Below, piece by piece: positions 4,749 through 58,760 of a DNA stretch of 64,000 nucleotides. Numbering within the stretch: position 1 is the first letter of the stretch; each line of letters starts with the position of its first letter. The DNA lies in assembly GCA_030765065.1 (NCBI GenBank), contig CM060990.1, forward strand, positions 11,655,501-11,719,500, given 5' to 3'. Position numbers and translations under genes: made by a program. Source of the DNA: Deroplatys truncata. Its lineage: Eukaryota > Arthropoda > Insecta > Mantodea > Mantidae. The notes under the pieces were generated by a model, which was given only the letters and a program-made list of their open reading frames with translations, was not told the origin of the DNA and ran no database searches.

Positions 4749-5030
4749 GGGTATGCAGACAAAACGAAGCAATAGGCTGCAAGAGTGCAACAATAAGGTT
4801 GGTACTTCCTCCAAACAAAGGAAGAAATAGGCTACAAGTGTGTAACTATAAGGTTGATACTTCCTCTAAACAAAGGAAGAAATAGGCTGCAAGTGTGTAA
4901 CTATAAGGTTGATACTTCCTTCAAACAAAGGAAGTAATAGGCTGCAAGTGTGTAACAATAAGGTTGATACTTCCTCCAAACAAAGGAAGTAATAGGCTGC
5001 AAGTGTGTAACAACAAGGTTGATACTTCCT

Positions 5031-8000
5031 CCAAACAAAGCAAGAAATAGGCTGCAAGTGTGTAACAATAAGGTTGATACTTCCTCCAAACAAAGCAGGA
5101 AATAGGCTGCAAGTGTGTAACAATAAGGTTGATACTTCCTCCAAACAAAGCAAGAAATAGGCTGAAAGTGTGTAACAATAAGGTTGATACTTCCTCCAAA
5201 CAAAGCAGGAAATAGGCTGCAAGTGTTGTAACAATAAGGTTGATACTTCCTCGAAACAAAGGAAGTAATAGGCTGCAAGTGTGTAGCACTAAGGTTTATA
5301 CATCCTCCAAACAAAGCAAGTAATAGGCTGCAGGTGTGTAACAATAAGGTTGATACTTCCTCCAAACAAAGGAAGAAATAGGCAGCAAGTGTGTAGCAAT
5401 AAAGTTGATACTTCCTCCAAACAAAGGAAGAAATAGGCTGCAAGTGTGTAGCAATAAAACTGATACTTCCTCCAAACAAAGGAAGTAATAGAATGCAAGT
5501 GTGTAGCAATAAAGTTGATACTTCCTCCAAACAAAGGAAGAAATAGGCTGCAAGTGTGTAACAATAAAGCTGATACTTCCTCCAAACAAAGGAAGTAATA
5601 GGCTACAAGTGTGTAGCAATAAAGTTGATACTTCCTCCAAACAAAGAAAGAAATAGGCTGCAAGTGTGTAACAACAAGGTTGATACTTCCTCCAAACAAA
5701 GGAAGTAATAAGCAACAAGTGTGTAGCAATAAAGTTGATACTTCCTCCAAACAAAGCAAGTAATAGGCTGCAAGTGTGAAACAATAAGGTTGATACTTCC
5801 TCCAAACAAAGAAAGTAATAGGCTGCAAGTGTGTATCAATAAGGTCGATACTTCCTCCAAACAAAGGAAGAAATAGGCTGCAAGTGTGAAACAATAAGGT
5901 TGATACTTCCTCCAAACAAAGCAAGTAATTGGCTGCAAGTGTGTAACATATAGGGTTTATGCTTCCTCCAAACGAAGGAAGTAATAGGCAGCAAGTGTGT
6001 AACAATAAGGTTGATACTTCCTCCAAACAAAGGAAGTAATAGGTTGCAAGTGTGTAACAATAAGGTTGATACTTCCTCCAAACAAAGCTAGTAATAGGTA
6101 GCAAGTGTGTAGCAATAAGGTTGATACTTCCTCCAAACAAAGGAAGTAATAGGCAGCAAGTGTGTAACAATAAAGTTGATACTTCCTCCAAACAACGGAA
6201 GTAATAGGCAGCAAGTGTGTAACAATAAGGTTGATACTTCCTCCAAACAAAGAAAGTAATAGGCAGCAAGTGTGTAGCAATAAGGTTGATACTTCCTCCA
6301 AACAAAGAAAGAAATAGGCTGCAAGTGTGTAACAATAAGGTTGATACTTCCTCCAAACAAAGGACGTAATAGACAACAAGTGTGTAGCAATAAAGTTGAC
6401 ACTTCCTCCAAACAAAGGAAGTAATAGGCTGCAAGTGTGAAACAAAAAGGTTGATACTTCCTCTTAACAAAGAAAGTAATAGGCTGCAAGTGTGTATCAA
6501 TAAAGTCGATACTTCCTCCAAACAAAGGAAGAAATAGGCTGCAAGTGTAAAACAGTAAGGTTGATACTTCCTCCAAACAAAGGAAGTAACAGGTTGCAAG
6601 TGTGTAACAATAAGGTTGAAACTTCCTCCAAACAAACCTAGTACTAGGCAGCAAGTGTGTAGCAATAAGGTTGATACTTCCTCCAAACAAAGGAAGTAAT
6701 AGGCAGCAAGTGTGTAACAATAAAGTTGATACTTCCTCCAAACAAAGGAAGTAATAGGCAGCAAGTGTGTAGCAATAAGGTTGATACTTCCTCCAAACAA
6801 CGGTAGTAATAGGCAGCAAGTGTGTAGCAATAAAGTTGATACTTCCTCCAAACAAAGGAAGTAATAAGCAGCAAGTGTGTAACAATAAGGTTGATACTTC
6901 CTCCAAACAAAGGAAGTAATAGGCTGCAAGTGTAACAATAAGGTTGATACTTCCTCCAAACAAAGGCAGAAATAGGCTGCAAGTGTGTAACAATAAGGTT
7001 GATACTTTCTCCAAACAAAGGTAGTAATAGGCTGAAAGTGTGTAACAATAAGGTTGATACTTCCTCCAAACAAAGGCAGAAATAGGCTGCAAGTGTGTAA
7101 CAATAAGGTTGATACTTCCTCCAAACAAATGAAGTAATGGGCAGCAAGTGTGTAACTATAAGGTTGATACTTCCTCCAAACAAAGGTAGTAATAGGCTTC
7201 AAGTGTGTAACAATAAGGTTGATACTTCCTCCAAACAAAGGAAGTATAAGGCTGCAAGTGTGTAACAATAAGGTTGATACTTCCTATAAACAAAGGAAGT
7301 AATAGGCTGCAAGTGTGTAACTATAAGGTTGATACTTCCTGCAAACACAGGTAGTAATAGGCTGCAAGTTTGTAACTATAAGGTTGATACTTCCTCCAAA
7401 CAAAGAAAGTAATAGGCTGCAAGTGTGTAACAATGAGGTTGATACTTCCACCAAACAAACGAAGTAATAGGCTGCAAGTGTGTAACAATAAGGTTGATAC
7501 TTCCTCAAAACAAAGGCAGAAATAGGCTGCAAGTGTGTAACAATAAGGTTCATACTTCCTCCAAACAAAGGAAGTAATGGGCAGCAAGTGTGTAACTATA
7601 AGGTTGATACTTCCTCCAAATAAGGTAGTAATAGGCAGCAAGTGTGTAGCAATACGGTTGATACTTCCTCCAAACAAAGGAAGTAATAGGCTGCAAGTGT
7701 GTAACAATAAGGTTGATACTTCCTCCAAACAAAGGAAGTAACAGGCTGCAAGTATGTAGCAATAAGGTTGATATTTCCTCCAAACAAAAGAAATAAAAGG
7801 CTGCAAGTGTGTATCAATAAGGTTGATACTTCCTCCAAACAAAGCAAGTAATAGGCAGCAAGTGTGTAGCAATAAGGTTGGTACTTCCTCCAAACAAAGG
7901 AAGTAATTGGCTGCAAGTGTGTAACTATAAGGTTGATACTTCCTCCAAACAAAGGAAGTAATTGGCTGCAAGTTAGTAACAATAGGGTTTATGCTTCCTC

Positions 8001-9807
8001 CAAACAAAGCAAGAAATAGGCTGCAAGTGTGTAACAATAGGGTTTATGTTTCCTACAAACAAAGCAAGAAATAGGCTGCAAGTGTGTAACAATAGGGTTT
8101 ATGCTTCCTCCAAACAAAGCAAGAAATAGTTTGCAAGTGTGTTACAGTAAGGTTTATGCTTCCTCTAACAAAGGAAGAAATAGGCTGTAAGTGTGTAACA
8201 ATAATGTTGATACTTCCTCCAAACGATGGAAGTAATAGGCTGCAAGTGTGTAACAACAAGGTTTATGCTTCCTCCAAACGAAGCAAGAAATAGGCTGCAA
8301 GTGTGTAACAATAGGGGTTATGCTTCCTCTAAACGAAGGAAGAAATAGGCTGCAAGTGTGTAACAATAAGGTTTATGCTTCCTCCAAACGAAGCAAGAAA
8401 TAGGCTGCAAGTGTGTAACAATAAGGTTATGCTTCCTCAAACGAAGCAAGAGATAGGCTTCAAGTGTGTAACAATAGGGTTTATGCTTCCTCCAAACGAA
8501 GCAAGAAATAGGCTGCAAGTGTGTAACAATAAGGTTTATGCTTCCTCCAAACAAAGCAAGAAATGGGCTGCAAGTGTGTAACAATAGGGTTTATGCTTCC
8601 TCCAAACAAAGGAAGTAATAGGCTGCAAGCGTGTAACAATAAGTTTGATACTTCCTCCAAACGAAGGAACTAATAGGATGCAAGTGTGTAACTATATAGT
8701 TGATACTTCCTCCAAACAAAGAAAGTAATGGGCAGCAAGTGTGTAGCAATAAGGTTAATACTTCCTCCAAAAAAGGAAGTAATAGGCTGAAGGTGTGTAA
8801 CAATAAGATTGATACTTCCTCCGAACAAAGGAAGTAATAGGCTGAAAGTCTGTAACAATAAGGTTGATACTTCCTACAAACAAAGGAAGAAATAGACTGC
8901 AAGTGTGTAACAATAAGGTTGATACTTCTTCCATACAAAGGAAGTAATTGGCTGCAAGTGTGTCACAATAGGGTTTATGTTTCCTACAAACGAAGGAAGT
9001 AATAGGCTGCAAGTGTGTAACAATAGGGTTTATGCTTCCTCCAAACAAAGGAAGTAATAGGCTGCAAGTGTGTAACAATAGGGTTTATGGTTCCTCCAAA
9101 CGAAGGAAGTAATAGGCTGCGAGTGTGTAACAAGAGGGTGTATGCTTCCGCCAAACGAAGGAAGTAATAAGCTGCAAGTGTGTAACAATAGGGTTTATGC
9201 TTCCTCCAAACGAAGGAAGTAATGGGCTGCAAGTGTGTAACAATAAGGTTTATGCTTCCTCCAAACGAAGGAAGTAATAGGCTGCAAGTGTGTAACAATA
9301 GGGTTTATGCTTCCTCCAAACGAGGATGTATTATGCTGCAAGTGTGTAACAATAGGGTTTATGCTTCCTCCAAACAAAGGAAGTAATAGGCTGCAGGTGT
9401 GTATTAATAAGTTTGATACTTCCTTCAAACAAAGGAAGCAATAGGTTGAAGGGTGTAACAATAAGGTTGATACTTCCTCCAAACAAAGGAAGAAATAGAC
9501 TGCAAGTGTGTAACAATAAGGTTGATACTTCCTCTAAACAAAGCAAGTAATTGGCTGCAAGTGTGTCACAATAGGGTTTATGTTTCCTACAAACGAAGGA
9601 AGTAATAGGCTGCAAGTGTGTAACAATAGGGTTTATGCTTCCTCCAAACAAAGGAAGTAATGGGCAGCAGGTGTGTAACAATAGGGTTTATGCTTCCTCC
9701 AAACAAAGGAAGTAAAAGGCTGCAAGTGTGTAACAATAGAGTTTATGCTTCCTCCAAACAAAGGAAGTAATGGGCAACAAGTGTGTAACAATAAGGTTGA
9801 TACTTCC
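5031..9807. repeat. Higher-order unit D1 (4.78 kb, 55-bp satellite)
   Basis: First of three tandem multi-monomer units. The same order of variant monomers reappears from 9,808. Landmarks are the gtgtagcac variant at 5,281 and the ctatatagttgatac variant near 8,692. It is 165 bp (exactly three monomers) shorter than D2 and D3 because of a gap near 6,570, where the other copies have extra monomers (about 11,365-11,530 in D2). Identity to D2 is very high, particularly right of 7,280. Confidence 0.85.
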
Positions 9808-12800
9808 TGCAAACAAAGCAAGAAATAGGCTGCAAGTGTGTAACAATAAGGTTGATACTTCCTCCAAACAAAGCAGGAAATAGGCTGCAAGTGTGTAACA
9901 ATAAGGTTGATACTTCCTCCAAACAAAGCAAGAAATAGGCTGAAAGTGTGTAACAATAAGGTTGATACTTCCTCCAACAAAGCAGGAAATAGGCTGCAAG
10001 TGTTGTAACAATAAGGTTGATACTTCCTCGAAACAAAGGAAGTAATAGGCTGCAAGTGTGTAGCACTAAGGTTTATACATCCTCCAAACAAAGCAAGTAA
10101 TAGGCTGCAGGTGTGTAACAATAAGGTTGATACTTCCTCCAAACAAAGGAAGAAATAGGCAGCAAGTGTGTAGCCATAAAGTTGATACTTCCTCCAAACA
10201 AAGGAAGAAATAGGCTGCAAGTGTGTAGCAATAAAACTGATACTTCCTCCAAACAAAGGAAGTAATAGAATGCAAGTGTGTAGCAATAAAGTTGATACTT
10301 CCTCCAAACAAAGGAAGAAATAGGCTGCAAGTGTGTAACAATAAAGTTGATACTTCCTCCAAACAAAGGAAGTAATAGGCTACAAGTGTGTAGCAATAAA
10401 GTTGATACTTCCTCCAAACAAAGAAAGAAATAGGCTGCAAGTGTGTAACAACAAGGTTGATACTTCCTCCAAACAAAGGAAGTAATAAGCAACAAGTGTG
10501 TAGCAATAAAGTTGATACTTCCTCCAAACAAAGCAAGTAATAGGCTGCAAGTGTGAAACAATAAGGTTGATACTTCCTCCAAACAAAGAAAGTAATAGGC
10601 TGCAAGTGTGTATCAATAAGGTCGATACTTCCTCCAAACAAAGGAAGAAATAGGCTGCAAGTGTGAAACAATAAGGTTGATACTTCCTCCAAACAAAGCA
10701 AGTAATTGGCTGCAAGTGTGTAACATATAGGGTTTATGCTTCCTCCAAACGAAGGAAGTAATAGGCAGCAAGTGTGTAACAATAAGGTTGATACTTCCTC
10801 CAAACAAAGGAAGTAATAGGTTGCAAGTGTGTAACAATAAGGTTGATACTTCCTCCAAACAAAGCTAGTAATAGGTAGCAAGTGTGTAGCAATAAGGTTG
10901 ATACTTCCTCCAAACAAAGGAAGTAATAGGCAGCAAGTGTGTAACAATAAAGTTGATACTTCCTCCAAACAAAGGAAGTAATAGGCAGCAAGTGTGTAAC
11001 AATAAGGTTGATACTTCCTCCAAACAAAGAAAGTAATAGGCAGCAAGTGTGTAGCAATAAGGTTGATACTTCCTCCAAACAAAGAAAGAAATAGGCTGCA
11101 AGTGTGTAACAATAAGGTTGATACTTCCTCCAAACAAAGGAAGTAATAGACAACAAGTGTGTAGCAATAAAGTTGACACTTCCTCCAAACAAAGGAAGTA
11201 ATAGGCTGCAAGTGTGAAACAAAAAGGTTGATACTTCCTCTTAACAAAGAAAGTAATAGGCTGCAAGTGTGTATCAATAAAGTCGATACTTCCTCCAAAC
11301 AAAGGAAGAAATAGGCTGCAAGTGTGAAACAGTAAGGTTGATACTTCCTCCAAACAAAGGAAGTAATTGGCTGCAAGTGTGTAACAATAGGGTTTATGCT
11401 TCCTCCAACGTAAGGAAGTAATAGGCAGCAAGTGTGTAACAATAAGGTTCATACTTCCTCCAAAAAAAGGAAGAAATAGGCTGCAAGTGTGTAACAATAA
11501 GGTTGATACTTCCTCCAAACAAAGGAAGTAACAGGTTGCAAGTGTGTAACAATAAGGTTGAAACTTCCTCCAAACAAACCTAGTACTAGGCAGCAAGTGT
11601 GTAGCAATAAGGTTGATACTTCCTCCAAACAAAGGAAGTAATAGGCAGCAAGTGTGTAACAATAAAGTTGATACTTCCTCCAAACAAAGGAAGTAATAGG
11701 CAGCAAGTGTGTAGCAATAAGGTTGATACTTCCTCCAAACAACGGTAGTAATAGGCAGCAAGTGTGTAGCAATAAAGTTGATACTTCCTCCAAACAAAGG
11801 AAGTAATAAGCAGCAAGTGTGTAACAATAAGGTTGATACTTCCTCCAAACAAAGGAAGTAATAGGCTGCAAGTGTAACAATAAGGTTGATACTTCCTCCA
11901 AACAAAGGCAGAAATAGGCTGCAAGTGTGTAACAATAAGGTTGATACTTTCTCCAAACAAAGAAAGTAATAGGCTGAAAGTGTGTAACAATAAGGTTGAT
12001 ACTTCCTCCAAACAAAGGCAGAAATAGGCTGCAAGTGTGTAACAATAAGGTTGATACTTCCTCCAAACAAAGGAAGTAATGGGCAGCAAGTGTGTAACTA
12101 TAAGGTTGATACTTCCTCCAAACAAAGGTAGTAATAGGCTTCAAGTGTGTAACAATAAGGTTGATACTTCCTCCAAACAAAGGAAGTATAAGGCTGCAAG
12201 TGTGTAACAATAAGGTTGATACTTCCTATAAACAAAGGAAGTAATAGGCTGCAAGTGTGTAACTATAAGGTTGATACTTCCTGCAAACACAGGTAGTAAT
12301 AGGCTGCAAGTTTGTAACTATAAGGTTGATACTTCCTCCAAACAAAGAAAGTAATAGGCTGCAAGTGTGTAACAATGAGGTTGATACTTCCACCAAACAA
12401 ACGAAGTAATAGGCTGCAAGTGTGTAACAATAAGGTTGATACTTCCTCAAAACAAAGGCAGAAATAGGCTGCAAGTGTGTAACAATAAGGTTCATACTTC
12501 CTCCAAACAAAGGAAGTAATGGGCAGCAAGTGTGTAACTATAAGGTTGATACTTCCTCCAAATAAGGTAGTAATAGGCAGCAAGTGTGTAGCAATACGGT
12601 TGATACTTCCTCCAAACAAAGGAAGTAATAGGCTGCAAGTGTGTAACAATAAGGTTGATACTTCCTCCAAACAAAGGAAGTAACAGGCTGCAAGTATGTA
12701 GCAATAAGGTTGATATTTCCTCCAAACAAAAGAAATAAAAGGCTGCAAGTGTGTATCAATAAGGTTGATACTTCCTCCAAACAAAGCAAGTAATAGGCAG

Positions 12801-14749
12801 CAAGTGTGTAGCAATAAGGTTGGTACTTCCTCCAAACAAAGGAAGTAATTGGCTGCAAGTGTGTAACTATAAGGTTGATACTTCCTCCAAACAAAGGAAG
12901 TAATTGGCTGCAAGTTAGTAACAATAGGGTTTATGCTTCCTCCAAACAAAGCAAGAAATAGGCTGCAAGTGTGTAACAATAGGGTTTATGTTTCCTACAA
13001 ACAAAGCAAGAAATAGGCTGCAAGTGTGTAACAATAGGGTTTATGCTTCCTCCAAACAAAGCAAGAAATAGTTTGCAAGTGTGTTACAGTAAGGTTTATG
13101 CTTCCTCTAACAAAGGAAGAAATAGGCTGTAAGTGTGTAACAATAATGTTGATACTTCCTCCAAACGATGGAAGTAATAGGCTGCAAGTGTGTAACAACA
13201 AGGTTTATGCTTCCTCCAAACGAAGCAAGAAATAGGCTGCAAGTGTGTAACAATAGGGGTTATGCTTCCTCCAAACGAAGGAAGAAATAGGCTGCAAGTG
13301 TGTAACAATAAGGTTTATGCTTCCTCCAAACGAAGCAAGAAATAGGCTGCAAGTGTGTAACAATAAGGTTATGCTTCCTCAAACGAAGCAAGAGATAGGC
13401 TTCAAGTGTGTAACAATAGGGTTTATGCTTCCTCCAAACGAAGCAAGAAATAGGCTGCAAGTGTGTAACAATAAGGTTTATGCTTCCTCCAAACAAAGCA
13501 AGAAATGGGCTGCAAGTGTGTAACAATAGGGTTTATGCTTCCTCCAAACAAAGGAAGTAATAGGCTGCAAGCGTGTAACAATAAGTTTGATACTTCCTCC
13601 AAACGAAGGAACTAATAGGATGCAAGTGTGTAACTATATAGTTGATACTTCCTCCAAACAAAGAAAGTAATGGGCAGCAAGTGTGTAGCAATAAGGTTAA
13701 TACTTCCTCCAAAAAAGGAAGTAATAGGCTGAAGGTGTGTAACAATAAGATTGATACTTCCTCCGAACAAAGGAAGTAATAGGCTGAAAGTCTGTAACAA
13801 TAAGGTTGATACTTCCTACAAACAAAGGAAGAAATAGACTGCAAGTGTGTAACAATAAGGTTGATACTTCTTCCATACAAAGGAAGTAATTGGCTGCAAG
13901 TGTGTCACAATAGGGTTTATGTTTCCTACAAACGAAGGAAGTAATAGGCTGCAAGTGTGTAACAATAGGGTTTATGCTTCCTCCAAACAAAGGAAGTAAT
14001 AGGCTGCAAGTGTGTAACAATAGGGTTTATGGTTCCTCCAAACGAAGGAAGTAATAGGCTGCGAGTGTGTAACAAGAGGGTGTATGCTTCCGCCAAACGA
14101 AGGAAGTAATAAGCTGCAAGTGTGTAACAATAGGGTTTATGCTTCCTCCAAACGAAGGAAGTAATGGGCTGCAAGTGTGTAACAATAAGGTTTATGCTTC
14201 CTCCAAACGAAGGAAGTAATAGGCTGCAAGTGTGTAACAATAGGGTTTATGCTTCCTCCAAACGAGGATGTATTATGCTGCAAGTGTGTAACAATAGGGT
14301 TTATGCTTCCTCCAAACAAAGGAAGTAATAGGCTGCAGGTGTGTATTAATAAGTTTGATACTTCCTTCAAACAAAGGAAGCAATAGGTTGAAGGGTGTAA
14401 CAATAAGGTTGATACTTCCTCCAAACAAAGGAAGAAATAGACTGCAAGTGTGTAACAATAAGGTTGATACTTCCTCTAAACAAAGCAAGTAATTGGCTGC
14501 AAGTGTGTCACAATAGGGTTTATGTTTCCTACAAACGAAGGAAGTAATAGGCTGCAAGTGTGTAACAATAGGGTTTATGCTTCCTCCAAACAAAGGAAGT
14601 AATGGGCAGCAGGTGTGTAACAATAGGGTTTATGCTTCCTCCAAACAAAGGAAGTAAAAGGCTGCAAGTGTGTAACAATAGAGTTTATGCTTCCTCCAAA
14701 CAAAGGAAGTAATGGGCAACAAGTGTGTAACAATAAGGTTGATACTTCC
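9808..14749. repeat. Higher-order unit D2 (4,942 bp)
   Basis: Second copy of the ~4.94-kb unit, about 90 monomers. It corresponds base for base to D3 at an offset of 4,942. The one difference I noticed is at 11,963-11,964 (aa here, gt in D3 and in D1), so the change is private to D2. Confidence 0.88.
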
Positions 14750-17700
14750 TGCAAACAAAGCAAGAAATAGGCTGCAAGTGTGTAACAATAAGGTTGATAC
14801 TTCCTCCAAACAAAGCAGGAAATAGGCTGCAAGTGTGTAACAATAAGGTTGATACTTCCTCCAAACAAAGCAAGAAATAGGCTGAAAGTGTGTAACAATA
14901 AGGTTGATACTTCCTCCAACAAAGCAGGAAATAGGCTGCAAGTGTTGTAACAATAAGGTTGATACTTCCTCGAAACAAAGGAAGTAATAGGCTGCAAGTG
15001 TGTAGCACTAAGGTTTATACATCCTCCAAACAAAGCAAGTAATAGGCTGCAGGTGTGTAACAATAAGGTTGATACTTCCTCCAAACAAAGGAAGAAATAG
15101 GCAGCAAGTGTGTAGCCATAAAGTTGATACTTCCTCCAAACAAAGGAAGAAATAGGCTGCAAGTGTGTAGCAATAAAACTGATACTTCCTCCAAACAAAG
15201 GAAGTAATAGAATGCAAGTGTGTAGCAATAAAGTTGATACTTCCTCCAAACAAAGGAAGAAATAGGCTGCAAGTGTGTAACAATAAAGTTGATACTTCCT
15301 CCAAACAAAGGAAGTAATAGGCTACAAGTGTGTAGCAATAAAGTTGATACTTCCTCCAAACAAAGAAAGAAATAGGCTGCAAGTGTGTAACAACAAGGTT
15401 GATACTTCCTCCAAACAAAGGAAGTAATAAGCAACAAGTGTGTAGCAATAAAGTTGATACTTCCTCCAAACAAAGCAAGTAATAGGCTGCAAGTGTGAAA
15501 CAATAAGGTTGATACTTCCTCCAAACAAAGAAAGTAATAGGCTGCAAGTGTGTATCAATAAGGTCGATACTTCCTCCAAACAAAGGAAGAAATAGGCTGC
15601 AAGTGTGAAACAATAAGGTTGATACTTCCTCCAAACAAAGCAAGTAATTGGCTGCAAGTGTGTAACATATAGGGTTTATGCTTCCTCCAAACGAAGGAAG
15701 TAATAGGCAGCAAGTGTGTAACAATAAGGTTGATACTTCCTCCAAACAAAGGAAGTAATAGGTTGCAAGTGTGTAACAATAAGGTTGATACTTCCTCCAA
15801 ACAAAGCTAGTAATAGGTAGCAAGTGTGTAGCAATAAGGTTGATACTTCCTCCAAACAAAGGAAGTAATAGGCAGCAAGTGTGTAACAATAAAGTTGATA
15901 CTTCCTCCAAACAAAGGAAGTAATAGGCAGCAAGTGTGTAACAATAAGGTTGATACTTCCTCCAAACAAAGAAAGTAATAGGCAGCAAGTGTGTAGCAAT
16001 AAGGTTGATACTTCCTCCAAACAAAGAAAGAAATAGGCTGCAAGTGTGTAACAATAAGGTTGATACTTCCTCCAAACAAAGGAAGTAATAGACAACAAGT
16101 GTGTAGCAATAAAGTTGACACTTCCTCCAAACAAAGGAAGTAATAGGCTGCAAGTGTGAAACAAAAAGGTTGATACTTCCTCTTAACAAAGAAAGTAATA
16201 GGCTGCAAGTGTGTATCAATAAAGTCGATACTTCCTCCAAACAAAGGAAGAAATAGGCTGCAAGTGTGAAACAGTAAGGTTGATACTTCCTCCAAACAAA
16301 GGAAGTAATTGGCTGCAAGTGTGTAACAATAGGGTTTATGCTTCCTCCAACGTAAGGAAGTAATAGGCAGCAAGTGTGTAACAATAAGGTTCATACTTCC
16401 TCCAAAAAAAGGAAGAAATAGGCTGCAAGTGTGTAACAATAAGGTTGATACTTCCTCCAAACAAAGGAAGTAACAGGTTGCAAGTGTGTAACAATAAGGT
16501 TGAAACTTCCTCCAAACAAACCTAGTACTAGGCAGCAAGTGTGTAGCAATAAGGTTGATACTTCCTCCAAACAAAGGAAGTAATAGGCAGCAAGTGTGTA
16601 ACAATAAAGTTGATACTTCCTCCAAACAAAGGAAGTAATAGGCAGCAAGTGTGTAGCAATAAGGTTGATACTTCCTCCAAACAACGGTAGTAATAGGCAG
16701 CAAGTGTGTAGCAATAAAGTTGATACTTCCTCCAAACAAAGGAAGTAATAAGCAGCAAGTGTGTAACAATAAGGTTGATACTTCCTCCAAACAAAGGAAG
16801 TAATAGGCTGCAAGTGTAACAATAAGGTTGATACTTCCTCCAAACAAAGGCAGAAATAGGCTGCAAGTGTGTAACAATAAGGTTGATACTTTCTCCAAAC
16901 AAAGGTAGTAATAGGCTGAAAGTGTGTAACAATAAGGTTGATACTTCCTCCAAACAAAGGCAGAAATAGGCTGCAAGTGTGTAACAATAAGGTTGATACT
17001 TCCTCCAAACAAAGGAAGTAATGGGCAGCAAGTGTGTAACTATAAGGTTGATACTTCCTCCAAACAAAGGTAGTAATAGGCTTCAAGTGTGTAACAATAA
17101 GGTTGATACTTCCTCCAAACAAAGGAAGTATAAGGCTGCAAGTGTGTAACAATAAGGTTGATACTTCCTATAAACAAAGGAAGTAATAGGCTGCAAGTGT
17201 GTAACTATAAGGTTGATACTTCCTGCAAACACAGGTAGTAATAGGCTGCAAGTTTGTAACTATAAGGTTGATACTTCCTCCAAACAAAGAAAGTAATAGG
17301 CTGCAAGTGTGTAACAATGAGGTTGATACTTCCACCAAACAAACGAAGTAATAGGCTGCAAGTGTGTAACAATAAGGTTGATACTTCCTCAAAACAAAGG
17401 CAGAAATAGGCTGCAAGTGTGTAACAATAAGGTTCATACTTCCTCCAAACAAAGGAAGTAATGGGCAGCAAGTGTGTAACTATAAGGTTGATACTTCCTC
17501 CAAATAAGGTAGTAATAGGCAGCAAGTGTGTAGCAATACGGTTGATACTTCCTCCAAACAAAGGAAGTAATAGGCTGCAAGTGTGTAACAATAAGGTTGA
17601 TACTTCCTCCAAACAAAGGAAGTAACAGGCTGCAAGTATGTAGCAATAAGGTTGATATTTCCTCCAAACAAAAGAAATAAAAGGCTGCAAGTGTGTATCA

Positions 17701-19691
17701 ATAAGGTTGATACTTCCTCCAAACAAAGCAAGTAATAGGCAGCAAGTGTGTAGCAATAAGGTTGGTACTTCCTCCAAACAAAGGAAGTAATTGGCTGCAA
17801 GTGTGTAACTATAAGGTTGATACTTCCTCCAAACAAAGGAAGTAATTGGCTGCAAGTTAGTAACAATAGGGTTTATGCTTCCTCCAAACAAAGCAAGAAA
17901 TAGGCTGCAAGTGTGTAACAATAGGGTTTATGTTTCCTACAAACAAAGCAAGAAATAGGCTGCAAGTGTGTAACAATAGGGTTTATGCTTCCTCCAAACA
18001 AAGCAAGAAATAGTTTGCAAGTGTGTTACAGTAAGGTTTATGCTTCCTCTAACAAAGGAAGAAATAGGCTGTAAGTGTGTAACAATAATGTTGATACTTC
18101 CTCCAAACGATGGAAGTAATAGGCTGCAAGTGTGTAACAACAAGGTTTATGCTTCCTCCAAACGAAGCAAGAAATAGGCTGCAAGTGTGTAACAATAGGG
18201 GTTATGCTTCCTCCAAACGAAGGAAGAAATAGGCTGCAAGTGTGTAACAATAAGGTTTATGCTTCCTCCAAACGAAGCAAGAAATAGGCTGCAAGTGTGT
18301 AACAATAAGGTTATGCTTCCTCAAACGAAGCAAGAGATAGGCTTCAAGTGTGTAACAATAGGGTTTATGCTTCCTCCAAACGAAGCAAGAAATAGGCTGC
18401 AAGTGTGTAACAATAAGGTTTATGCTTCCTCCAAACAAAGCAAGAAATGGGCTGCAAGTGTGTAACAATAGGGTTTATGCTTCCTCCAAACAAAGGAAGT
18501 AATAGGCTGCAAGCGTGTAACAATAAGTTTGATACTTCCTCCAAACGAAGGAACTAATAGGATGCAAGTGTGTAACTATATAGTTGATACTTCCTCCAAA
18601 CAAAGAAAGTAATGGGCAGCAAGTGTGTAGCAATAAGGTTAATACTTCCTCCAAAAAAGGAAGTAATAGGCTGAAGGTGTGTAACAATAAGATTGATACT
18701 TCCTCCGAACAAAGGAAGTAATAGGCTGAAAGTCTGTAACAATAAGGTTGATACTTCCTACAAACAAAGGAAGAAATAGACTGCAAGTGTGTAACAATAA
18801 GGTTGATACTTCTTCCATACAAAGGAAGTAATTGGCTGCAAGTGTGTCACAATAGGGTTTATGTTTCCTACAAACGAAGGAAGTAATAGGCTGCAAGTGT
18901 GTAACAATAGGGTTTATGCTTCCTCCAAACAAAGGAAGTAATAGGCTGCAAGTGTGTAACAATAGGGTTTATGGTTCCTCCAAACGAAGGAAGTAATAGG
19001 CTGCGAGTGTGTAACAAGAGGGTGTATGCTTCCGCCAAACGAAGGAAGTAATAAGCTGCAAGTGTGTAACAATAGGGTTTATGCTTCCTCCAAACGAAGG
19101 AAGTAATGGGCTGCAAGTGTGTAACAATAAGGTTTATGCTTCCTCCAAACGAAGGAAGTAATAGGCTGCAAGTGTGTAACAATAGGGTTTATGCTTCCTC
19201 CAAACGAGGATGTATTATGCTGCAAGTGTGTAACAATAGGGTTTATGCTTCCTCCAAACAAAGGAAGTAATAGGCTGCAGGTGTGTATTAATAAGTTTGA
19301 TACTTCCTTCAAACAAAGGAAGCAATAGGTTGAAGGGTGTAACAATAAGGTTGATACTTCCTCCAAACAAAGGAAGAAATAGACTGCAAGTGTGTAACAA
19401 TAAGGTTGATACTTCCTCTAAACAAAGCAAGTAATTGGCTGCAAGTGTGTCACAATAGGGTTTATGTTTCCTACAAACGAAGGAAGTAATAGGCTGCAAG
19501 TGTGTAACAATAGGGTTTATGCTTCCTCCAAACAAAGGAAGTAATGGGCAGCAGGTGTGTAACAATAGGGTTTATGCTTCCTCCAAACAAAGGAAGTAAA
19601 AGGCTGCAAGTGTGTAACAATAGAGTTTATGCTTCCTCCAAACAAAGGAAGTAATGGGCAACAAGTGTGTAACAATAAGGTTGATACTTCC
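14750..19691. repeat. Higher-order unit D3 (4,942 bp)
   Basis: Third copy, nearly identical to D2. Homology to the start of another unit stops at about 19,691, where the following monomers carry the gcaaagaaagg variant instead. The rightmost part (from about 18,950) also matches 29,608 onward at an offset of 10,658. The D and E blocks therefore share ancestry. Confidence 0.85.
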
Positions 19692-20830: not shown

Positions 20831-20989
20831 GGGTTTATGCTTCCTCCAAACGAAGGAAGTATTTAGCTGCAAGTGTGTAACAATAGGGTTTATGCTTCCT
20901 CCAAACAAAGGAAGTAATGGGCTGCAAGTGTGTAACAATAAGGTTTATGCTTCCTTTCAAACGAAGGAAGTGATAGGCTGCAAGTGTGT

Positions 20990-42900: not shown

Positions 42901-43190
42901 AGTCTGTAACAATAAGATTTATGCTTCCTTCAAACAAAGCAAGAAATAGGCTGCAAGTGTGTAACAATAGGGTTTATGCTTCCTCCAAACGAAGGAAGTA
43001 ATAGGCTGCAAGTGAGTAATAATAAGGTTGATACTTCCTCCAAAAAGGAAATAATAGGCTGCAAGTGTGTAAAAATAAGGTTTATGCTTCCTCCAAACGG
43101 ATGAAGTAATAGGCTGCAAGTGTGTTACAATAAGGTTGATTATTCCTGCAAACGAAGGAAGTAATATGCTGCAAGTGTGTAACAATAGGG
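39940..43190. repeat. Block F2 of the 55-bp array (copy of 20,990-23,690)
   Basis: Expanded second copy of block F1, about 550 bp (ten monomers) longer, with several private whole-monomer duplications. It joins the G units at 43,191. Confidence 0.75.
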
Positions 43191-46100
43191 TTTATGCTTC
43201 CTCCAAACAAAGGAAGAAATAGGCTGCAAGTGTGTAACAATAGGGTTTATGCTTCCTCCAAACGAAGGAAGAAATAGGCTGCAAGTGTGTAACAATAACG
43301 TTGATACTTCCTCCAAACAAAGCAAGAAATAGGCTGCAAGTGTGTAACAATAGGGTTTATGCTTCCTCCAAACAAAGGAAGTAATAGGCTGCAAGTGTGT
43401 AACAATAGGGTTTATGCTTCCTCCAAACAAAGGAAGAAATAGGCTGCAAGTGTGTAACAATAAAGTTGATACTTCCTCCAAACAAAGCAAGAAATAGGCT
43501 GCAAGTGTGTAACAATAGGGTTTATGCTTCCTCCAAACGAAGGAAGAAATAGGCTGCAAGTGAGTAACAATAAGGTTTATGCTTCTTCCAAACAAAGCAA
43601 GAAATAGGCTACAGGTGTGTAACAATAGGGTTTATGCTTCCTCCAAACATAGCAAGAAATAGGCTGCAAGTGTGTAACAATAGGGTTTATGCTTCCTCCA
43701 AACAAAGCAAGAAATAGGGTGCAAGTGTGTAGCAATAAGGTTTATGCTTCCTCCAAACGAAGGAAGAAATAGGCTGCAAGTGTGTAACAATGGGGTTGAT
43801 ACTTCCTCCAAACAAAGCAAGAAATAGGTTGCAAGTGTGTAACAATAGGGTTTATGCTTCCTCCAAACGAAGGAAGAAATAGGTTGCAAGTGTGTAACAA
43901 TAGGGTTTATGCTTCCTCCAAACGAAGGAAGAAATAGGCTGCAAGTGTGTAACAATAACGTTGATACTTCCTCCAAACAAAGCAGGAAATAGGCTGCAAG
44001 TGTGTAACAATAGGCTTTATGCTTCCTCCAAACAAAGGAAGTAATAGGCTGCAAATGTGTAACAATAGGGTTTATGCTTCCTCCAAACGAAGCGAGAAAT
44101 AGGCTGCAAGTGTGTAACAATAAGGTTTATGCTTCCTCAAACGAAGCAAGAAATAGGCTTCAGTTGTGTAACAATAGGGTTTATGCTTCCTCCAAACGAA
44201 GCATGAAATAGGCTGCAAGTGTGTAACAATAAGGTTTATGCTTCCTCCAAACAAAGCAAGAAATGGGCTGCAAGTGTGTAACAATAGGGTTTATGCTTCC
44301 TCCAAACAAAGGAAGTAATAGGCTGCAAGCGTGTAACAATAAGGTTGATACTTCCTCCAAACGAAGGAACTAATAGGATGCAAGTGTGTAACTATATAGT
44401 TGATACTTCCTCCAAACAAAGGAAGTAATGGGCAGCAAGTGTGTAGCAATAAGGTTAATACTTCCTCCAAGCAAAGGAAGTAATAGGCTGAAGGTGTGTA
44501 ACAATAAGATTGATACTTCCTCCAAACAAAGGAAGTAATAGGCTGAAAGTCTATAACAATAAGGTTGATACTTCCTCCAAACAAAGGAAGAAATAGACTG
44601 CAAGTGTGTAACAATAAGGTTGATACTTCCTCCATACAAAGGAAGTAATTGGCTGCAAGTGTGTCACAATAGGGTTTATGTTTCCTACAAACGAAGGAAG
44701 TAATAGGCTGCAAGTGTGTAACAATAGGGTTTATGCTTCCTCCAAAAAAGGAAGTAATGGGCAGCAAGTGTGTAACAATAGGGTTTATGCTTCCTCCAAA
44801 CAAAGGAAGTAATAGGCTGCAAGTGTGTAACAATAGAGTTTATGCTTCCTCCAAACAAAGGAAGTAATGGGCAACAAGTGTGTAACAATAAGGTTGATAC
44901 TTCCTGCAAAGAAAGGAAGTAATAAGCTGCAAGTGTGTAACAATAAGGATGATACTTCCTGCAAACAAAGGAAGTAATAGGCTGCAAGTGTGTAACAATA
45001 GGATTGATTCTTCCTCCAAACAAAGGAAGTAATAGGCTGCAAGTGTGTAACAATAAGGTTGATACTTCCTAAAAACAAAGGAAGTAATAGGCTGCAAGTG
45101 TGTAACAATAAGGTTGATACTTCCTCCAAAAAAAGGAAGAAATAGGCTGCAAGAGTGTAACAATAGGGTTATGTTTCCTCCAAAAAAAGGAATAAATAGG
45201 CTGCAAGTTTGTAACAATAAATTGATACTTCCTCCAAACAAAGGAAGAAATAGGCTGCAAGTGTGTAACAATAGGGTTTATGCTTCCTCCAAACGAAGGA
45301 AGTAATAGGCTGCAAGTGTGTAACAATAAGGTTGATACTTCCTCCAAAGGAAGGAAGTAATTGGCTGCAAGTGTGTGGCAATAAGGTTGATACTTCCTCC
45401 AAACAAAGCAAGAAATAGGCTGCAAGTCTGTAACAATAAGGTTTATGCTTCCTTCAAACAAAGCAAGAAATAGGCTGCGAGTGTGTAACAATAGGGTTTA
45501 TGCTTCCTCCAAACGAAGGAAATAATAGGCTGAAAGTGAGTAATAATAAGGTTGATACTTCCTCCAAACAAAGGAAGTAATAGGCTGCAAGTGTGTAACC
45601 ATAGGGTTTATGCTTCCTCCAAACGAATGAAGAAATAGGCTGCAAGTGTGTAACCATAGGGTTTATGCTTCCTCCAAACGAAGGAAGTAATAGGTTGCAA
45701 GTGTGTAACAGTAGGGCTTATGCTTCCTCCAAACGAAGGAAGTAATGGGCTGCAAGTGTGTAACAATAAGGTTTATGCTTCCCTTCAAACGAAGGAAGTA
45801 ATTAGCTGTTAAGTGTGTAACAATAGGGTTTATGCTTCCTCCAAACGAAGGAAGTAATAGGCTGCATGTGTGTAACAATAGGGTTTATGCTTCCTCCAAA
45901 CAAAGGAAGTAATAGGCTGCATGTGTGTAACAATAGGGTTTATGCTTCCTCCAAACGAAGGAAGTAATAGGCAGCGAGTGTGTAACAAGAGGGCTTATGC
46001 TTCCTCCAAACGAAGGAAGTAATGGGATGCAAGTGTGTAACAATAAGGTTTATGCTTCCTCCAAACGAAGGAAGTAATAGGCTGCAAGTGTGTAACAATA

Positions 46101-49100
46101 GGGTTTATGCTTCCTCCAAACGAGGATGTATTATGCTGCACGTGTGTAACAATAGGGTTTATGCTTCCTCCAAAGAACGGAAGTAATAGGCTGCAAGTGT
46201 GTATTAATAAGTTTGATACTTCCTTCAAACAAACGAAGCAATAGGTTGCAAGTGTGTAACAATAAGGTTGATACTTCCTCCAAACAAAGGAGGAAATAGA
46301 CTGCAAGTGTGTAACAATAAGGTTGATACTTCCTCCAAACAAAGGAAGTAATTGGCTGCAAGTGTGTCACAATAGGGTTTATGTTTCCTACAAACGAAGG
46401 TAGTAATAGGCTGCAAGTGTGTAACAATAGGGTTTATGCTTCCTCCAAACAAAGGACGTAATGGGCAGCAGGTGTGTAACAATAGGGTTTATGCTTCCTC
46501 CAAACAAAGGAAGTAATAGGCTGCAAGTGTGTAACAATAGAGTTTATGCTTCCTCCAAACAAAGGATGTAATGGGCAACAAGTGTGTAACAATAAGGTTG
46601 ATACTTCCTGCAAAGAAAGGAAGTAATAAGTTGCAACTGTGTAACAATAAGGTTGATACTTCCTGCAAAGAAAGGAAGTAATAGGCTGGAAGTGTGTAAC
46701 AAAAGGATTGATACTTCCTCCAAACAAAGGAAGTAATAGGCTGCAAGTGTGTAACAATAATTTTGATACTTCCTAAAAACAAAGGAAGCAATAGGCTGCA
46801 AGTGTGTAACAATAGGATTGATACTTCCTCCAAACAAAGGAAGTAATAGGCTGCAAGTGTGTAACATAAATGTTGATACTTCCTCCAAAAAAAGGAAGAA
46901 ATAGGCTGCAAGTGTGTAACAAAAGGGTTATGTTTCCTCCAAAAAAAGGAAAAAATAGGCTGCAAGTTTGTAACAATAAAGTTGATACATCCTCCAAACA
47001 AAGGAAGAAATAGGCTGCAAGTGTGTAACAATAGGGTTTATGCTTCCTCCAAACGAAGGAAGTAACAGGCTGCAAGTGTGTAACAATACGATTGATATTT
47101 CCTCCAACAAAGGAAGAAATAGGCATCAAGTGTGTAACAATAAGGTTGATACTTCCTCCAAAGGAAGGAAGTAATTGGCTGCAAGTATGTGGCAATAAGG
47201 TTGACACTTCCTCCAAACAAAGCAAGAAATAGGCTGCAAGTCTGTAACAATAAGATTTATGCTTCCTTCAAACAAAGCAAGAAATAGGCTGCAAGTGCGT
47301 AACAATAGGGTTTATGCTTCCTCCAAACGAAGGAAGTAATAGGCTGCAAGTGAGTAATAATAAGGTTGATACTTCCTCCAAAAAGGAAATAATAGGCTGC
47401 AAGTGTGTAACCATAGGGTTTATGCTTCCTCCAAACGAAGGAAGAAATAGGCTGCAAGTGTGTAACCATAGGGTTTATGCTTCCTCCAAACGAAGGAAGT
47501 AATAGGCTGCAAGTGTGTAGCAGTAGGGTTTATGCTTCTTCCAAACGAAGGAAGTAATTGGCTGCAAGTGTGTAACAATAAGGTTTATGCTTCCTTTCAA
47601 ACGAAGGAAGTGATAGGCTGCAAGTGTGTAACAATAGGGTTTATGCTTCCTCCAAACGAAGGAAGTAATAGGCTGCAAGTGCGTAACAATAGGGTTTATG
47701 CTTCCTCCAAACGAAGGAAGTAATAGGCTGCAAGTGTGTAACAATAGGGTTTATGCTTTCTCCAAACGAAGGAAGTAATAGGCTGCAAGTGTGTAACAAT
47801 AGGGTTTATGCTTTCTCCAAACGAAGGAAGTAATAGGCTGCAAGTGTGTAACAATAGGGTTTATGCTTCCTCCAAACGAAGGAAGTATTTAGCTGCAAGT
47901 GTGTAACAATAGGGTTTATGCTTCCTCCAAACGAAGGAAGTATTGGGCTGCAAGTGTGTAACAATAAGGTTTATGCTTCCTCCAAACGAAGGAAGTAATA
48001 GGCTGCAGGTGTGTAACAATAGGGTTTATGCTTCCTCCAAACAAGGATGTATTATGCTGCAAGTGTGTAACAATAGGGTTTATGCTTCCTCCAAACGAAG
48101 GAAGTAATAGGCTGCAAGTGTGTAGCAATAAATTTGATACTACCTCCAAACAAAGGAAGTAATAGGCTACAAGTGTATAAAAATAAGGTTTATGCTTCCT
48201 CCAAACGGATGAAGTAATAGGCTGCAAGTGTGTTACAATAAGGTTTATACTTCCTGCAAACGAAGGAAGTAATATGCTGCAAGTGTGTAACAATAGGGTT
48301 TATGCTTCCTCCAAACAAAGGAAGTAATAGGCTGCAAGTATGTAACAATAAGTTTGATACTTCCTTCAAACAATGGAAGTAATAAGTTGCAAGTGTGTAA
48401 GAATAAGGTTGATACTTCCTCCAAACAAAGGAAGTAATAGGCTGCAAGTGTGTAAGAATAAGGTTGATACTTCCACGAAACAAAGGAAGTAATAGCCTGC
48501 AAGTGTGTAACAATAAGGTTGATGCTTCCTCCAAACGAAGGAAGTAATAGGCTGCAAGTGTGTAACAAGAAGGTTGATACTTCCTCCAAACAAAGGAAGT
48601 AATAGGCTGCAAGTTTGTAACTATAAGGTTGATATTTCCTCCAAACAAAGCAAGAAATAGGCTGCAAGTGTGTAACAATAGGGTTTATGCTTCCTCCAAA
48701 CAAAGGAAGTAATGGGCTGCAAGTGTGTAACAATAAGGTTTATGCTTCCTTTCAAACGAAGGAAGTGATAGGCTGCAAGTGTGTAACAATAGGGTTTATG
48801 CTTACTCCAAACGAAGGAAGTAATAGGCTGCAAGTGCGTAACAATAGGGTTTATGCTTCCTCCAAACGAAGGAAGTAATAGGCTGCAAGTTTGTAACAAT
48901 GGGGTTTATGCTTCCACCAAACGAAGGAAGTAATAGGCTGCAAGTGTGTAACAATAGGGTTTATGCTTCCTCCAAACGAATGAAGTAATAAGCTGCAAGT
49001 GTGTAACAATAGGGTTTATGCTTCCTCCAAACGAAGGAAGTAATAGGCTGCAAGTGTGTAGCAATAAAGTTGATACTACCTCCAAACAAAGGAAGTAATA

Positions 49101-49672
49101 GGCTGCAAGTGTGTAAAAATAAGGTTTATGCTTCCTCCAAACGGATGAAGTAATAGGCTGCAAGTGTGTTACAATAAGGTTATACTTCCTGCAAACGAAG
49201 GAAGTAATATGCTGCAAGTGTGTAACAATAGGGTTTATGCTTCCTCCAAACAAAGGAAGTAATAGGCTGCAAGTGTGTATTAATAAGTTTGATACTTCCT
49301 TCAAACAAAGGAAGCAATAGGTTGCAAGTGTGTATCAATAAGGTTGATACTTACTCCAAACAAAGGAAGTAATAGGCTGCAAGTGTGTAACAATAAGGTT
49401 GATACTTCCTCCAAACAAAGGAAGTAATAGGCTGCAAGTGTGTAACAATAAGGTTGATACTTCCTCCAAACGAAGGAAGTAATAGGCTGCAAGTGTGTAA
49501 CAAGAAGGTTGATACTTCCTCCAAACCAAGGAAGTAATAGGCTGCAAGTGTGTAACAATAAGGTTGATACTTCCTCCAAACAAAGGAAGTAATAGGCTGC
49601 AAGTGTGTAACAATAAGGTTGATATTTCCTCCAAACAAACAAGAAATAGGCTGCAAGTGTGTAACAATAGGG
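43191..49672. repeat. Higher-order unit G1 (~6.48 kb)
   Basis: It begins with a type B run containing the aataacgttgatac and caaacatagcaag variants. That start recurs at 49,673 and 55,389. It includes the ctatatagttgatac landmark at 44,391, so it shares ancestry with the D and E units. Confidence 0.78.
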
Positions 49673-52600
49673 TTTATGCTTCCTCCAAACAAAGGAAGAA
49701 ATAGGCTGCAAGTGTGTAACAATAGGGTTTATGCTTCCTCCAAACGAAGGAAGAAATAGGCTGCAAGTGTGTAACAATAACGTTGATACTTCCTCCAAAC
49801 AAAGCAAGAAATAGGCTGCAAGTGTGTAACAATAGGGTTTATGCTTCCTTCAAACAAAGGAAGTAATAGGCTGCAAGTGTGTAACAATAGGGTTTATGCT
49901 TCCTCCAAACAAAGGAAGAAATAGGCTGCAAGTGTGTAACAATAAGGTTGATACTTCAACTAAACAAAGCAAGAAATAGGCTGCAAGTGTGTAACAATAG
50001 GGTTTATGCTTCCTCCAAACGAAGGAAGAAATAGGCTGCAAGTGAGTAACAATAAGGTTTATGCTTCTTCCAAACAAAGCAAGAAATAGGCTGCAGGTGT
50101 GTAACAATAGGGTTTATGCTTCCTCCAAACATAGCAAGAAATAGGCTGCCAGTGTGTAACAATAGTGTTTATGCTTCCTCCAAACAAAGCAAGAAATAGG
50201 GTGCAAGTGTGTAGCAATAAGGTTTATGCTTCCTCCAAACGAAGGAAGAAATAGGCTGCAAGTGTGTAACAATGGGGTTGATACTTCCTCCAAACAAAGC
50301 AAGAAATAGGTTGCAAGTGTGTAACAATAGGGTTTATGCCTCCTCCAAACGTAGGAAGAAATAGGCTGCAAGTGAGTAACAATAAGGTTTATGCTTCTTC
50401 CAAACAAAGCAAGAAATAGGCTGCAGGTGTGTAACAATAGGGTTTATGCTTCCTCCAAACATAGCAAGAAATAGGCTGCCAGTGTGTAACAATAGGGTTT
50501 ATGCTTCCTCCAAACAAAGCAAGAAATAGGGTGCATGTGTGTAGCAATAAGGTTTATGCTTCCTCCAAACGAAGGAAGAAATAGGCTGCAAGTGTGTAAC
50601 AATGGGGTTGATACTTCCTCCAAACAAAGCAAGAAATAGGTTGCAAGTGTGTAACAATAGGGTTTATGCCTCCTCCAAACGAAGGAAGAAATAGGCTGCA
50701 AGTGTGTAACAATAGGGTTTATGCTTCCTCCAAACGAAGGAAGAAATAGGCTGCAAGTGTGTAACAATAACGTTGATACTTCCTCCAAACAAAGCAGGAA
50801 ATAGGCTGCAAGTGTGTAACAATAGGCTTCATGCTTCCTCCAAACAAAGGAAGTAATAGGCTGCAAGTGTGTAACAATAGGGTTTATGCTTCCTCCAAAC
50901 GAAGCAAGAAATAGGCTGCAAGTGTGTAACAATAAGGTTTATGCTTCCTCAAACGATGCAAGAAATAGGCTTCAAGTGTGTAACAATAGGGTTTATGCTT
51001 CCTCCAAACGAAGCAAGAAATAGGCTTCAAGTGTGTAACAATAAGGTTTATGCTTCCTCCAAACAATGCAAGAAATGGGCTGCAAGTGTGTAACAATAGG
51101 GTTTATGCTTCCTCCAAACAAAGGAAGTAATAGGCTGCAAGCGTGTAACAATAAGGTTGATACTTCCTCCAAACGAAGGAACTAATAGGATGCAATTGTG
51201 TAACTATATAGTTGATACTTCCTCCAAACAAAGGAAGTAATGGGCAGCAAGTGTGTAGCAATAAGGTTAATACTTCCTCCAAACAAAGGAAGTAATAGGC
51301 TGAAGGTGTGTAACAATAAGACTGATACTTCCTCCGAACAAAGGAAGTAATAGGCTGAAAGTCTGTAACAATAAGGTTGATACTTCCTCCAAACAAAGGA
51401 AGAAATAGACTGCAAGTGTGTAACAATAAGGTTGATACTTCCTCCATACAAAGGAAGTAATTGGCTGCAAGTGTGTCACAATAGGGTTTATGTTTCCTAC
51501 AAACGAAGGAAGTAATAGGCTGCAGGTGTGTAACAATAGGGTTTATGCTTCCTCCAAACAAAGGAAGTAATGGGCAGCAAGTGTGTAACAATAGGGTTTA
51601 TGCTTCCTCCAAACAAAGGAAGTAATAGGCCGCAAGTGTGTAACAATAGAGTTTATGCTTCCTCCAAACAAAGGAAGTAATGGGCAACAAGTGTGTAACA
51701 ATAAGGTTGATACTTCCTGCAAAGAAAGGAAGTAATAAGCTGCAAGTGTGTACCAATAAGGTTGATACTTCCTGCAAACAAAGGAAGTAATGGGCTGCAA
51801 GTGTGTAACAATAGGATTGATACTTCCTCCAAACAAAGGAAGTAATAGGCTGCAAGTGTGTAGCAATAAGGTTGATACTTCCTAAAAACAAAGGAAGTAA
51901 TAGGCTGCAAGTGTGTTACAATAAGGTTGATACTTCCTCCAAAAAAAGAAAGAAATAGGCTGCAAGTGTGTAAAAATAGGGTTATGTTTCCTCCAAACAA
52001 AGGAATAAATAGGCTGCAAGTTTGTAACAATAAATTGATACTTCCTCCAAACAAAGGAAGAAATAGGCTACAAGTGTGTAACAATAGGGTTTATGCTTCC
52101 TCCAAACGAAGGAAGTAATAGGCTGCAAGTGTGTAACAATAAGGTTGATACTTCCTCCAAAGGAAGGAAGTAATTGGCTGCAAGTGTGTGGCAATAAGGT
52201 TGATACTTCCTCCAAACAAAGCAAGAAATAGGCTGCAAGTCTGTAACAATAAGGTTTATGCTTCCTTCAAACAAAGCAAGAAATAGGCTGCAAGTGTGTA
52301 ACAATAGGGTTTATGCTTCCTCCAAACGAAGGAAATAATAGGCTGAAAGTGAGTAATAATAAGGTTGATACTTCTTCCAAACAAAGGAAGTAATAGGCTG
52401 CAAGTGTGTAACCATAGGGTTTATGCTTCCTCCAAACGAAGGAACAAATAGGCTGCAAGTGTGTAACCATAGGGTTTATGCTTCCTCCAAACGAAGGAAG
52501 TAATAGGCTGCAAGTGTGTAACAGTAGGGTTTATGCTTCCTCCAAACGAAGGAAGTAATAGGCTGCATGTGTGTAACAATAGGGTTTATGCTTCCTCCAA

Positions 52601-55388: not shown

Positions 55389-56557
55389 TTTATGCTTCCT
55401 CCAAACAAAGGAAGAAATAGGCTGCAAGTGTGTAACAATAGGGTTTATGCTTCCTCCAAACGAAGGAAGAAATAGGCTGCAAGTGTGTAACAATAACGTT
55501 GATACTTCCTCCAAACAAAGCAAGAAATAGGCTGCAAGTGTGTAACAATAGGGTTTATGCTTCCTCCAAACAAAGGAAGTAATAGGCTGCAAGTGTGTAA
55601 CAATAGGGTTTATGCTTCCTCCAAACGAAGGAAGAAATAGGCTGCAAGTGAGTAACAATAAGGTTTATGCTTCTTCCAAACAAAGCAAGAAATAGGCTGC
55701 AGGTGTGTAACAATAGGGTTTATGCTTCCTCCAAACATAGCAAGAAATAGGCTGCCAGTGTGTAACAATAGGGTTTATGCTTCCTCCAAACAAAGCAAGA
55801 AATAGGGTGCAAGTGTGTAGCAATAAGGTTTATGCTTCCTCCAAACGAAGGAAGAAATAGGCTGAAAGTGTGTAACAATGGGGTTGATACTTCCTCCAAA
55901 CAAAGCAAGAAATAGGTTGCAAGTGTGTAACAATAGGGTATATGCCTCCTCCAAACGAAGGAAGAAATAGGCTGCAAGTGTGTAACAATAGGGTTTATGC
56001 TTCCTCCAAACGAAGGAAGAAATAGGCTGCAAGTGTGTAACAATAACGTTGATACTTCCTCCAAACAAAGCAGGAAATAGGCTGCAAGTGTGTAACAATA
56101 GGCTTTATGCTTCCTCCAAACAAAGGAAGTAATAGGCTGCAAGTGTGTAACAATAGGGTTTATGCTTCCTCCAAACAAAGGAAGAATTAGGCTGCAAGTG
56201 TGTAACAATAAGGTTGATACTTCCTCCACACAAAGCAAGAAATAGGCTGCAAGTGTGTAACAATAGGGTTTATGCTTCCTCCAAACGAAGGAAGAAATAG
56301 GCTGCAAGTGAGTAACAATAGGGTTTATGCTTCCTCCAAACAAAGCAAGAAATGGGCTGCAGGTGTGTAACAATAGGGTGTTTCCTCCTCCAAACAATGC
56401 AAGAAATAGGCTGCAAGTGTGTAACAATAGGGTTTATGCTTCCTCCAAACAAAGCAAGAAATAGGCTGCAAGTGTGTAGCAATAAGGTTGATGCTTCCTC
56501 CAAACAAAGCAAGAAATAGGCTGCAAGTGTGTAGCAATAGGGTTGATACTTCCTGCA
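55389..56557. repeat. Partial higher-order unit G3 and right edge of array
   Basis: Third, truncated copy of the G start: it has the same B-type run with aataacgttgatac and caaacatagcaag. The array ends inside the conserved core at ttcctgcag, followed by unrelated sequence. Confidence 0.75.
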
Positions 56558-56565
56558 GTCGACGG

Positions 56566-58757: not shown

Positions 58758-58760
58758 AAT

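What the first reader, a model, noticed from the sequence alone, without database searches (positions are those of the whole stretch)
4749..56557. 51.8-kb uninterrupted 55-bp satellite with at least three nested higher-order periods
One short monomer (55 bp) is organised at several larger scales: ~4.94-kb units (x3), ~7.03-kb units (x2), a ~3-kb block repeated ~19 kb away, and ~5.7-6.5-kb units (x2 plus a part). Local duplications of 219, 330, 551 and 715 bp lie on top. Higher-order satellite structure is well known from alphoid DNA, but units of about 90-128 very short monomers, with several unit families chained in one array, are an unusual architecture. Satellites with active higher-order amplification are typical of centromeric or pericentromeric domains; that location is inference here.
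Basis: partly seen in the sequence, partly recalled or inferred. Interest (0 to 1): 0.7.

Follow-up and report, generated by a model that had tools for sequence, protein, structure and literature searches.

The report
Satellite array grown by block duplications
A 51.8-kb stretch of DNA is one 55-base motif repeated about 943 times and then copied again in blocks of several thousand bases; it is a very clear example of a known kind of satellite DNA, and nothing here shows that it belongs to a centromere.

Summary
Window 4756-56557 is one uninterrupted head-to-tail array of a 55-bp monomer: 942 full monomers of 53-56 bp, 403 of them distinct. Large block duplications lie on top. The clearest are three abutting copies of a 90-monomer unit (5037-9814, 9815-14756, 14757-19698; second and third differ at 3 of 4,942 bases) and two abutting copies of a 128-monomer unit (24078-31106, 31107-38135; 99.1% identical apart from gaps). 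Older, broken blocks with 104- and 124-monomer lags fill the right part. All five gaps longer than 1 bp inside the two young families are 55, 110 or 165 bp, that is whole monomers. Twenty shuffles of monomer order gave no comparable block.

This is a record of stacked block duplications, not a classical array of one unit repeated many times. Such structure on short monomers is in print, including a 61-bp human repeat with irregular multi-kb HORs in the pseudoautosomal region (PMC2588610, section 6 read). No test here supports a centromeric position. Neighbouring 76-bp and 416-bp arrays, the latter with its own 1.66-kb duplication, point to a generic local process. Species and chromosomal place stay unknown.

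The parts
4756..56557 (+). 55-bp satellite array, 942 full monomers plus two partial ones
5037..9814 (+). 90-monomer block family, copy 1 (87 monomers: 165 bp shorter than the other two)
9815..14756 (+). 90-monomer block family, copy 2 (4,942 bp)
14757..19698 (+). 90-monomer block family, copy 3 (4,942 bp; 3 mismatches to copy 2)
24078..31106 (+). 128-monomer block family, copy 1 (7,029 bp)
31107..38135 (+). 128-monomer block family, copy 2 (99.1% of aligned bases)
43159..49970 (+). older block, lag about 124 monomers to 49971-56557, 94.0% with many gaps
47646..50172 (+). older block, lag about 104 monomers to 53360-55888, 94-95% ungapped
21374..23787 (+). pieces repeated about 19 kb further on (40435-43287)
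57142..58757 (+). neighbouring 76-bp array, 21.3 copies; no detectable relation to the 55-bp unit
58761..61916 (+). neighbouring 416-bp array, 7.6 copies, with a four-unit (1,663-bp) duplication

Best explanation
A non-coding satellite array of an unnamed eukaryote. It grew in two regimes. First, small local steps spread a 55-bp monomer and let it diversify. Later, a modest number of large tandem duplications, tens to more than a hundred monomers each, copied whole stretches at different times; the 90-monomer triplication is the youngest, the 128-monomer duplication older, the 124- and 104-monomer blocks older still. The likely machinery is out-of-register homologous exchange between sister chromatids or within a chromatid (unequal crossing-over), because longer length changes between copies are whole monomers. 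Shown: array, blocks, order of divergence, whole-monomer gaps in the two young families. Inferred: the exchange mechanism, the number of events, and that no selected function is needed.
For: Blocks and sharp edges of the triplication. All 5 gaps longer than 1 bp in the 90- and 128-monomer families are 165, 55, 55, 110, 110 bp; the others are 1 bp. Divergence of aligned bases rises by family: 0.06-0.19%, 0.86%, 2.7%, 6.0%. Neighbouring monomers are slightly more alike than random pairs (0.892 vs 0.873; highest of 200 shuffles 0.876), which speaks for small steps too. A growth model (start 60-300 monomers, 72 runs) gives values near the observed ones at some settings: start 120, mean block 60, 2% mutation gave distinct monomers 388, 384, 443 (observed 403), coverage 1.0, 0.999, 0.979 (0.995), longest segment 134, 202, 170 (154), with 10-15 duplications. 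An unrelated neighbouring array shows the same kind of event.
Against: The growth model does not fit everything: lag-1 excess was -0.005 to 0.003 in all 72 runs against 0.019 observed, because starting monomers were drawn unlinked; mean identity was 0.787-0.864 in all runs, below the observed 0.873; at the setting quoted, segments of 30 or more monomers were 46-52 against 17. Constant-size models (15 runs, one mutation setting) gave 20-60 distinct monomers; only 4 of the 15 had a mean identity within 0.03 of the observed, so that comparison is rough. Crossing-over, break-induced replication and circle reinsertion leave similar traces and were not separated. Gaps in the 104- and 124-monomer pairs are not all whole monomers, but there the alignments are poor.
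Confidence: 0.82

Rival explanations
1. A functional centromeric or pericentromeric satellite whose blocks are true higher-order units maintained there.
For: Recent large amplification and satellite-rich surroundings (76-bp and 416-bp arrays next door) are common near centromeres.
Against: No unit spans the array; each occurs 2-3 times. The only match to the CENP-B box core (motif recalled) is in the right flank at 63503, about what chance gives. Known short-monomer arrays with irregular HORs also lie outside centromeres. The array is 51.8 kb and ends inside the window on both sides.
Confidence: 0.25
2. The near-identical 4.94-kb copies are an assembly artefact (one stretch laid down twice or haplotypes joined).
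For: Copies 2 and 3 differ at only 3 of 4,942 bases with no gap; such identity is hard for assemblers. No reads were available.
Against: Copy 1 differs from both by 8-9 mismatches and a 165-bp gap, the 128-monomer copies by 59 mismatches and several gaps, so the wider structure cannot be an artefact of this kind.
Confidence: 0.12
3. The triplication came from a circular DNA of about 90 monomers copied by rolling circle and put back, not from crossing-over.
For: Copies 2 and 3 have exactly the same length and all three abut, as head-to-tail products of one circle would.
Against: Two successive exchanges give the same picture; copy 1 is 165 bp shorter; nothing here separates the two.
Confidence: 0.2
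4. The minus strand codes for a repetitive protein: the consensus is open in all three minus frames and the longest open frame has 664 residues.
For: Open frames. Pfam Ferlin_C scored 46.1 bits for the 664-residue frame, above its cut-off of 29.4.
Against: Minus-strand stops are not depleted: 334 in the 403 distinct monomers against a null of 272.7 (sd 12.9, highest of 500 runs 315), so they are more frequent than the null. In the Ferlin_C and Arc_C matches no single stretch passed, so the scores are sums of weak repeated matches. One- to three-base indels between monomers shift the frame.
Confidence: 0.02

Closest known systems
61-bp tandem repeat of human Xp22.33 with irregular HORs of 1.6 and 2.5 kb (PMC2588610, section 6 read)
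   Same: Very short monomer, single array of tens of kb, several irregular higher-order units in a complex arrangement.
   Different: 18 kb there, 51.8 kb here; units of about 26-41 monomers (my division) against 90-128; no sequence comparison was made.
Human HsatII and GAATG arrays with 5.8, 3.36 and 3.6-kb HORs (PMC2588610)
   Same: Multi-kb units built from short monomers.
   Different: There one unit runs over 50-100 kb; here each unit occurs 2-3 times.
52-monomer alpha-satellite HOR of human chromosome 21, two copies (PMC12385485, passages)
   Same: A long unit present in only two tandem copies, 0.2% apart, monomers within it about 18% apart (here random monomers about 13% apart).
   Different: 171-bp centromeric monomer; here 55 bp and no known location.

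Membership tests
satellite DNA array | long head-to-tail array of one monomer | tested here: met
   942 full monomers, no insertion
satellite DNA array | non-coding | tested here: met
   no depletion of stops on the open strand; plus-strand consensus has stops in all frames
satellite DNA array | high genomic copy number at several loci | not testable with these tools
   own-genome search unanswered
classical HOR (alphoid type; criteria from passages of PMC12385485) | unit copies less than 5% apart, in tandem | tested here: met
   90-monomer x3 and 128-monomer x2
classical HOR (alphoid type) | monomers within a unit 20-40% apart | tested here: not met
   mean pairwise difference about 13% over the array
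classical HOR (alphoid type) | one unit repeated over most of the array | tested here: not met
   2-3 copies per unit; 90-monomer family covers 14.7 of 51.8 kb
centromeric satellite | CENH3/CENP-A occupancy or centromeric FISH signal | not testable with these tools
   no chromatin or cytogenetic data
centromeric satellite | CENP-B box (not universal; recalled motif) | tested here: not met
   no match to the core in the array; one in the right flank

The most novel reading that the evidence does not exclude
Blocks of 5-7 kb are the preferred unit of amplification in this region, in unrelated satellites as well as this one, through a mechanism that copies a fixed length more than once (for example circle reinsertion or break-induced replication), so that long 'higher-order' units arise without any centromere function.
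Probability: 0.15. Interest if true: 0.5.

Novelty: new member of a known kind. Interest (0 to 1): 0.3.

Why it matters
It is a compact, fully resolved array with three readable age layers, so it is a good test case for models of how satellites grow. It also cautions against reading higher-order structure as a sign of a centromere.

Tried and rejected
Coding on the minus strand: rejected, stops are in excess of the null. Conserved hairpin TACTTCC/GGAAGTA within the monomer: pairing equals the independence expectation at nearly every position within and between monomers, so no sign of covariation. CENP-B box: none in the array. RNA families: none in the window at gathering score and none in 56558-64000 at E up to 1; no tRNA by the bacterial-code ARAGORN. 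Common origin of the 55-, 76- and 416-bp units, or a progenitor monomer in the flanks: scores within the shuffled range. Target-site duplication at the array ends: longest shared word 6 bp. Taxon: 10 flank frames against Pfam gave one sub-threshold match (Peptidase_M66, 15.6 bits, cut-off 20.6); one frame against PDB gave none; an exact 25-base core of the monomer is absent from viral contigs and genome contigs and a 28-base piece of the 76-bp unit from viral contigs. Paper search for six 17-18-base words of the monomers found no paper; the four-term search for a 55-bp satellite with insect higher-order repeats found none; the further searches gave general works. That is no proof that this monomer is unpublished. 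My first reading that the 4.94-kb unit is present only 2.66 times was wrong and was mended.

Full report
What is there. Window 4756-56557 is a single head-to-tail array of a 55-bp monomer, consensus given by TRF. Aligned to that consensus it holds 942 full monomers: 837 of 55 bp, 66 of 54, 13 of 53, 26 of 56. None is longer, so nothing interrupts it. Mean identity to the consensus is 0.92, and 403 of the 942 monomers are distinct. Two linked sites (39 and 42, r = 0.92) split the monomers into two main types, and the string of types along the array repeats visibly with a period of 90 monomers in the left part.

Block structure. On a self-comparison many long diagonals appear. In monomer space, 210 segments pass 95.5% identity over 8 monomers, the longest of 154 monomers, and 99.5% of monomers lie in such segments of 10 or more; 20 shuffles of the order of monomers gave none. 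Sixteen different lags carry segments of 30 or more monomers. The youngest family is a tandem triplication with sharp edges: 5037-9814, 9815-14756, 14757-19698. Copies 2 and 3 have 3 mismatches in 4,942 bases; copy 1 has 8-9 mismatches to the others and lacks 165 bp, three monomers, at 6556. Next is a tandem duplication of 128 monomers, 24078-31106 and 31107-38135, with 59 mismatches in 6,862 aligned bases and internal gaps of 55, 55, 110 and 110 bp. The 104- and 124-monomer relations in the right part are older (97.3% and 94.0% of aligned bases) and broken by many gaps. The local steps of 219, 330, 551 and 715 bp and the 19-kb echo are also there.

How it probably arose. In the two young families all gaps above 1 bp are whole monomers, as expected if copies exchange in register. 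Neighbours are slightly more alike than random pairs (0.892 vs 0.873, 200 shuffles at most 0.876), so small steps act as well. Simulations give a rough guide. With constant size and steady turnover (15 runs, one mutation setting) 20-60 distinct monomers remain, against 403; only 4 of these runs matched the observed mean identity within 0.03, with 30-60 distinct. With growth from 60-300 monomers by block duplication (72 runs) several settings come near the observed distinct number, coverage and longest segment with about 10-35 duplications, but none reproduces the similarity of neighbours and all have a lower mean identity than observed. I therefore favour a few tens of large block duplications at most on top of older small steps. 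That number is a model-based inference.

What it is not, as far as tested. The consensus minus strand has no stop in any frame and open frames reach 664 residues, but stops are in excess of a null of moved substitutions (334 against 272.7, sd 12.9), and the Pfam scores of that frame rest on no single passing stretch. There is no covariation in the small inverted repeat of the monomer. No CENP-B box lies in the array.

Surroundings. A 76-bp array (57142-58757) and a 416-bp array (58761-61916) follow within 600 bp and share no detectable sequence with the 55-bp unit. The 416-bp array has its own 1,663-bp duplication of four units, 98.3% over the aligned part. So the same kind of event hit an unrelated repeat next door, which speaks for a property of the region or genome rather than of this monomer.

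Comparison with what is known. Multi-kb HORs on very short monomers were described in human DNA in 2008, including an 18-kb array of a 61-bp repeat with irregular HORs of 1.6 and 2.5 kb in the pseudoautosomal region (PMC2588610, section 6 read). Long units in only two copies also occur in alpha satellite, a 52-monomer HOR with 0.2% between copies (PMC12385485, passages). Saltatory amplification within satellite arrays is discussed for human centromeres, with the remark that simple unequal crossover may not suffice there (PMC11062924, passages); a grasshopper study attributes changes in satellite amount mainly to unequal crossing-over (PMC8822648, passages). The present case differs in the length of the units counted in monomers, not in kind.

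Limits. The genome of the window could not be searched. Host, chromosomal place and total abundance are therefore unknown. That the flanks look like insect DNA is my impression from recalled repeat styles and was not confirmed by any search.

Noticed in passing
58761-61916: A 416-bp tandem array of 7.6 copies whose first and fifth to seventh units are near-identical: a tandem duplication of four units (1,663 bp), 98.3% over the aligned part.
   Followed up: partly
57142-58757: A 76-bp tandem array of 21.3 copies directly before the 416-bp array, with no sequence in common with its neighbours above the shuffled range.
   Followed up: partly
56767-56940: A short frame right of the array that reminded me of a piece of a non-LTR reverse transcriptase (recall only); Pfam and PDB sequence searches found nothing.
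   Followed up: partly
1800-1850, 2470-2520, 2750-2830, 63290-63370: Stretches resembling tRNA B-box motifs followed by similar tails, as in tRNA-derived SINEs (recall only; no Rfam or tRNA match).
   Followed up: no
4762-56557: The consensus monomer read on the minus strand is free of stops in all three frames, which makes long but apparently meaningless open frames (up to 664 residues) that an automatic annotation could mistake for genes.
   Followed up: yes
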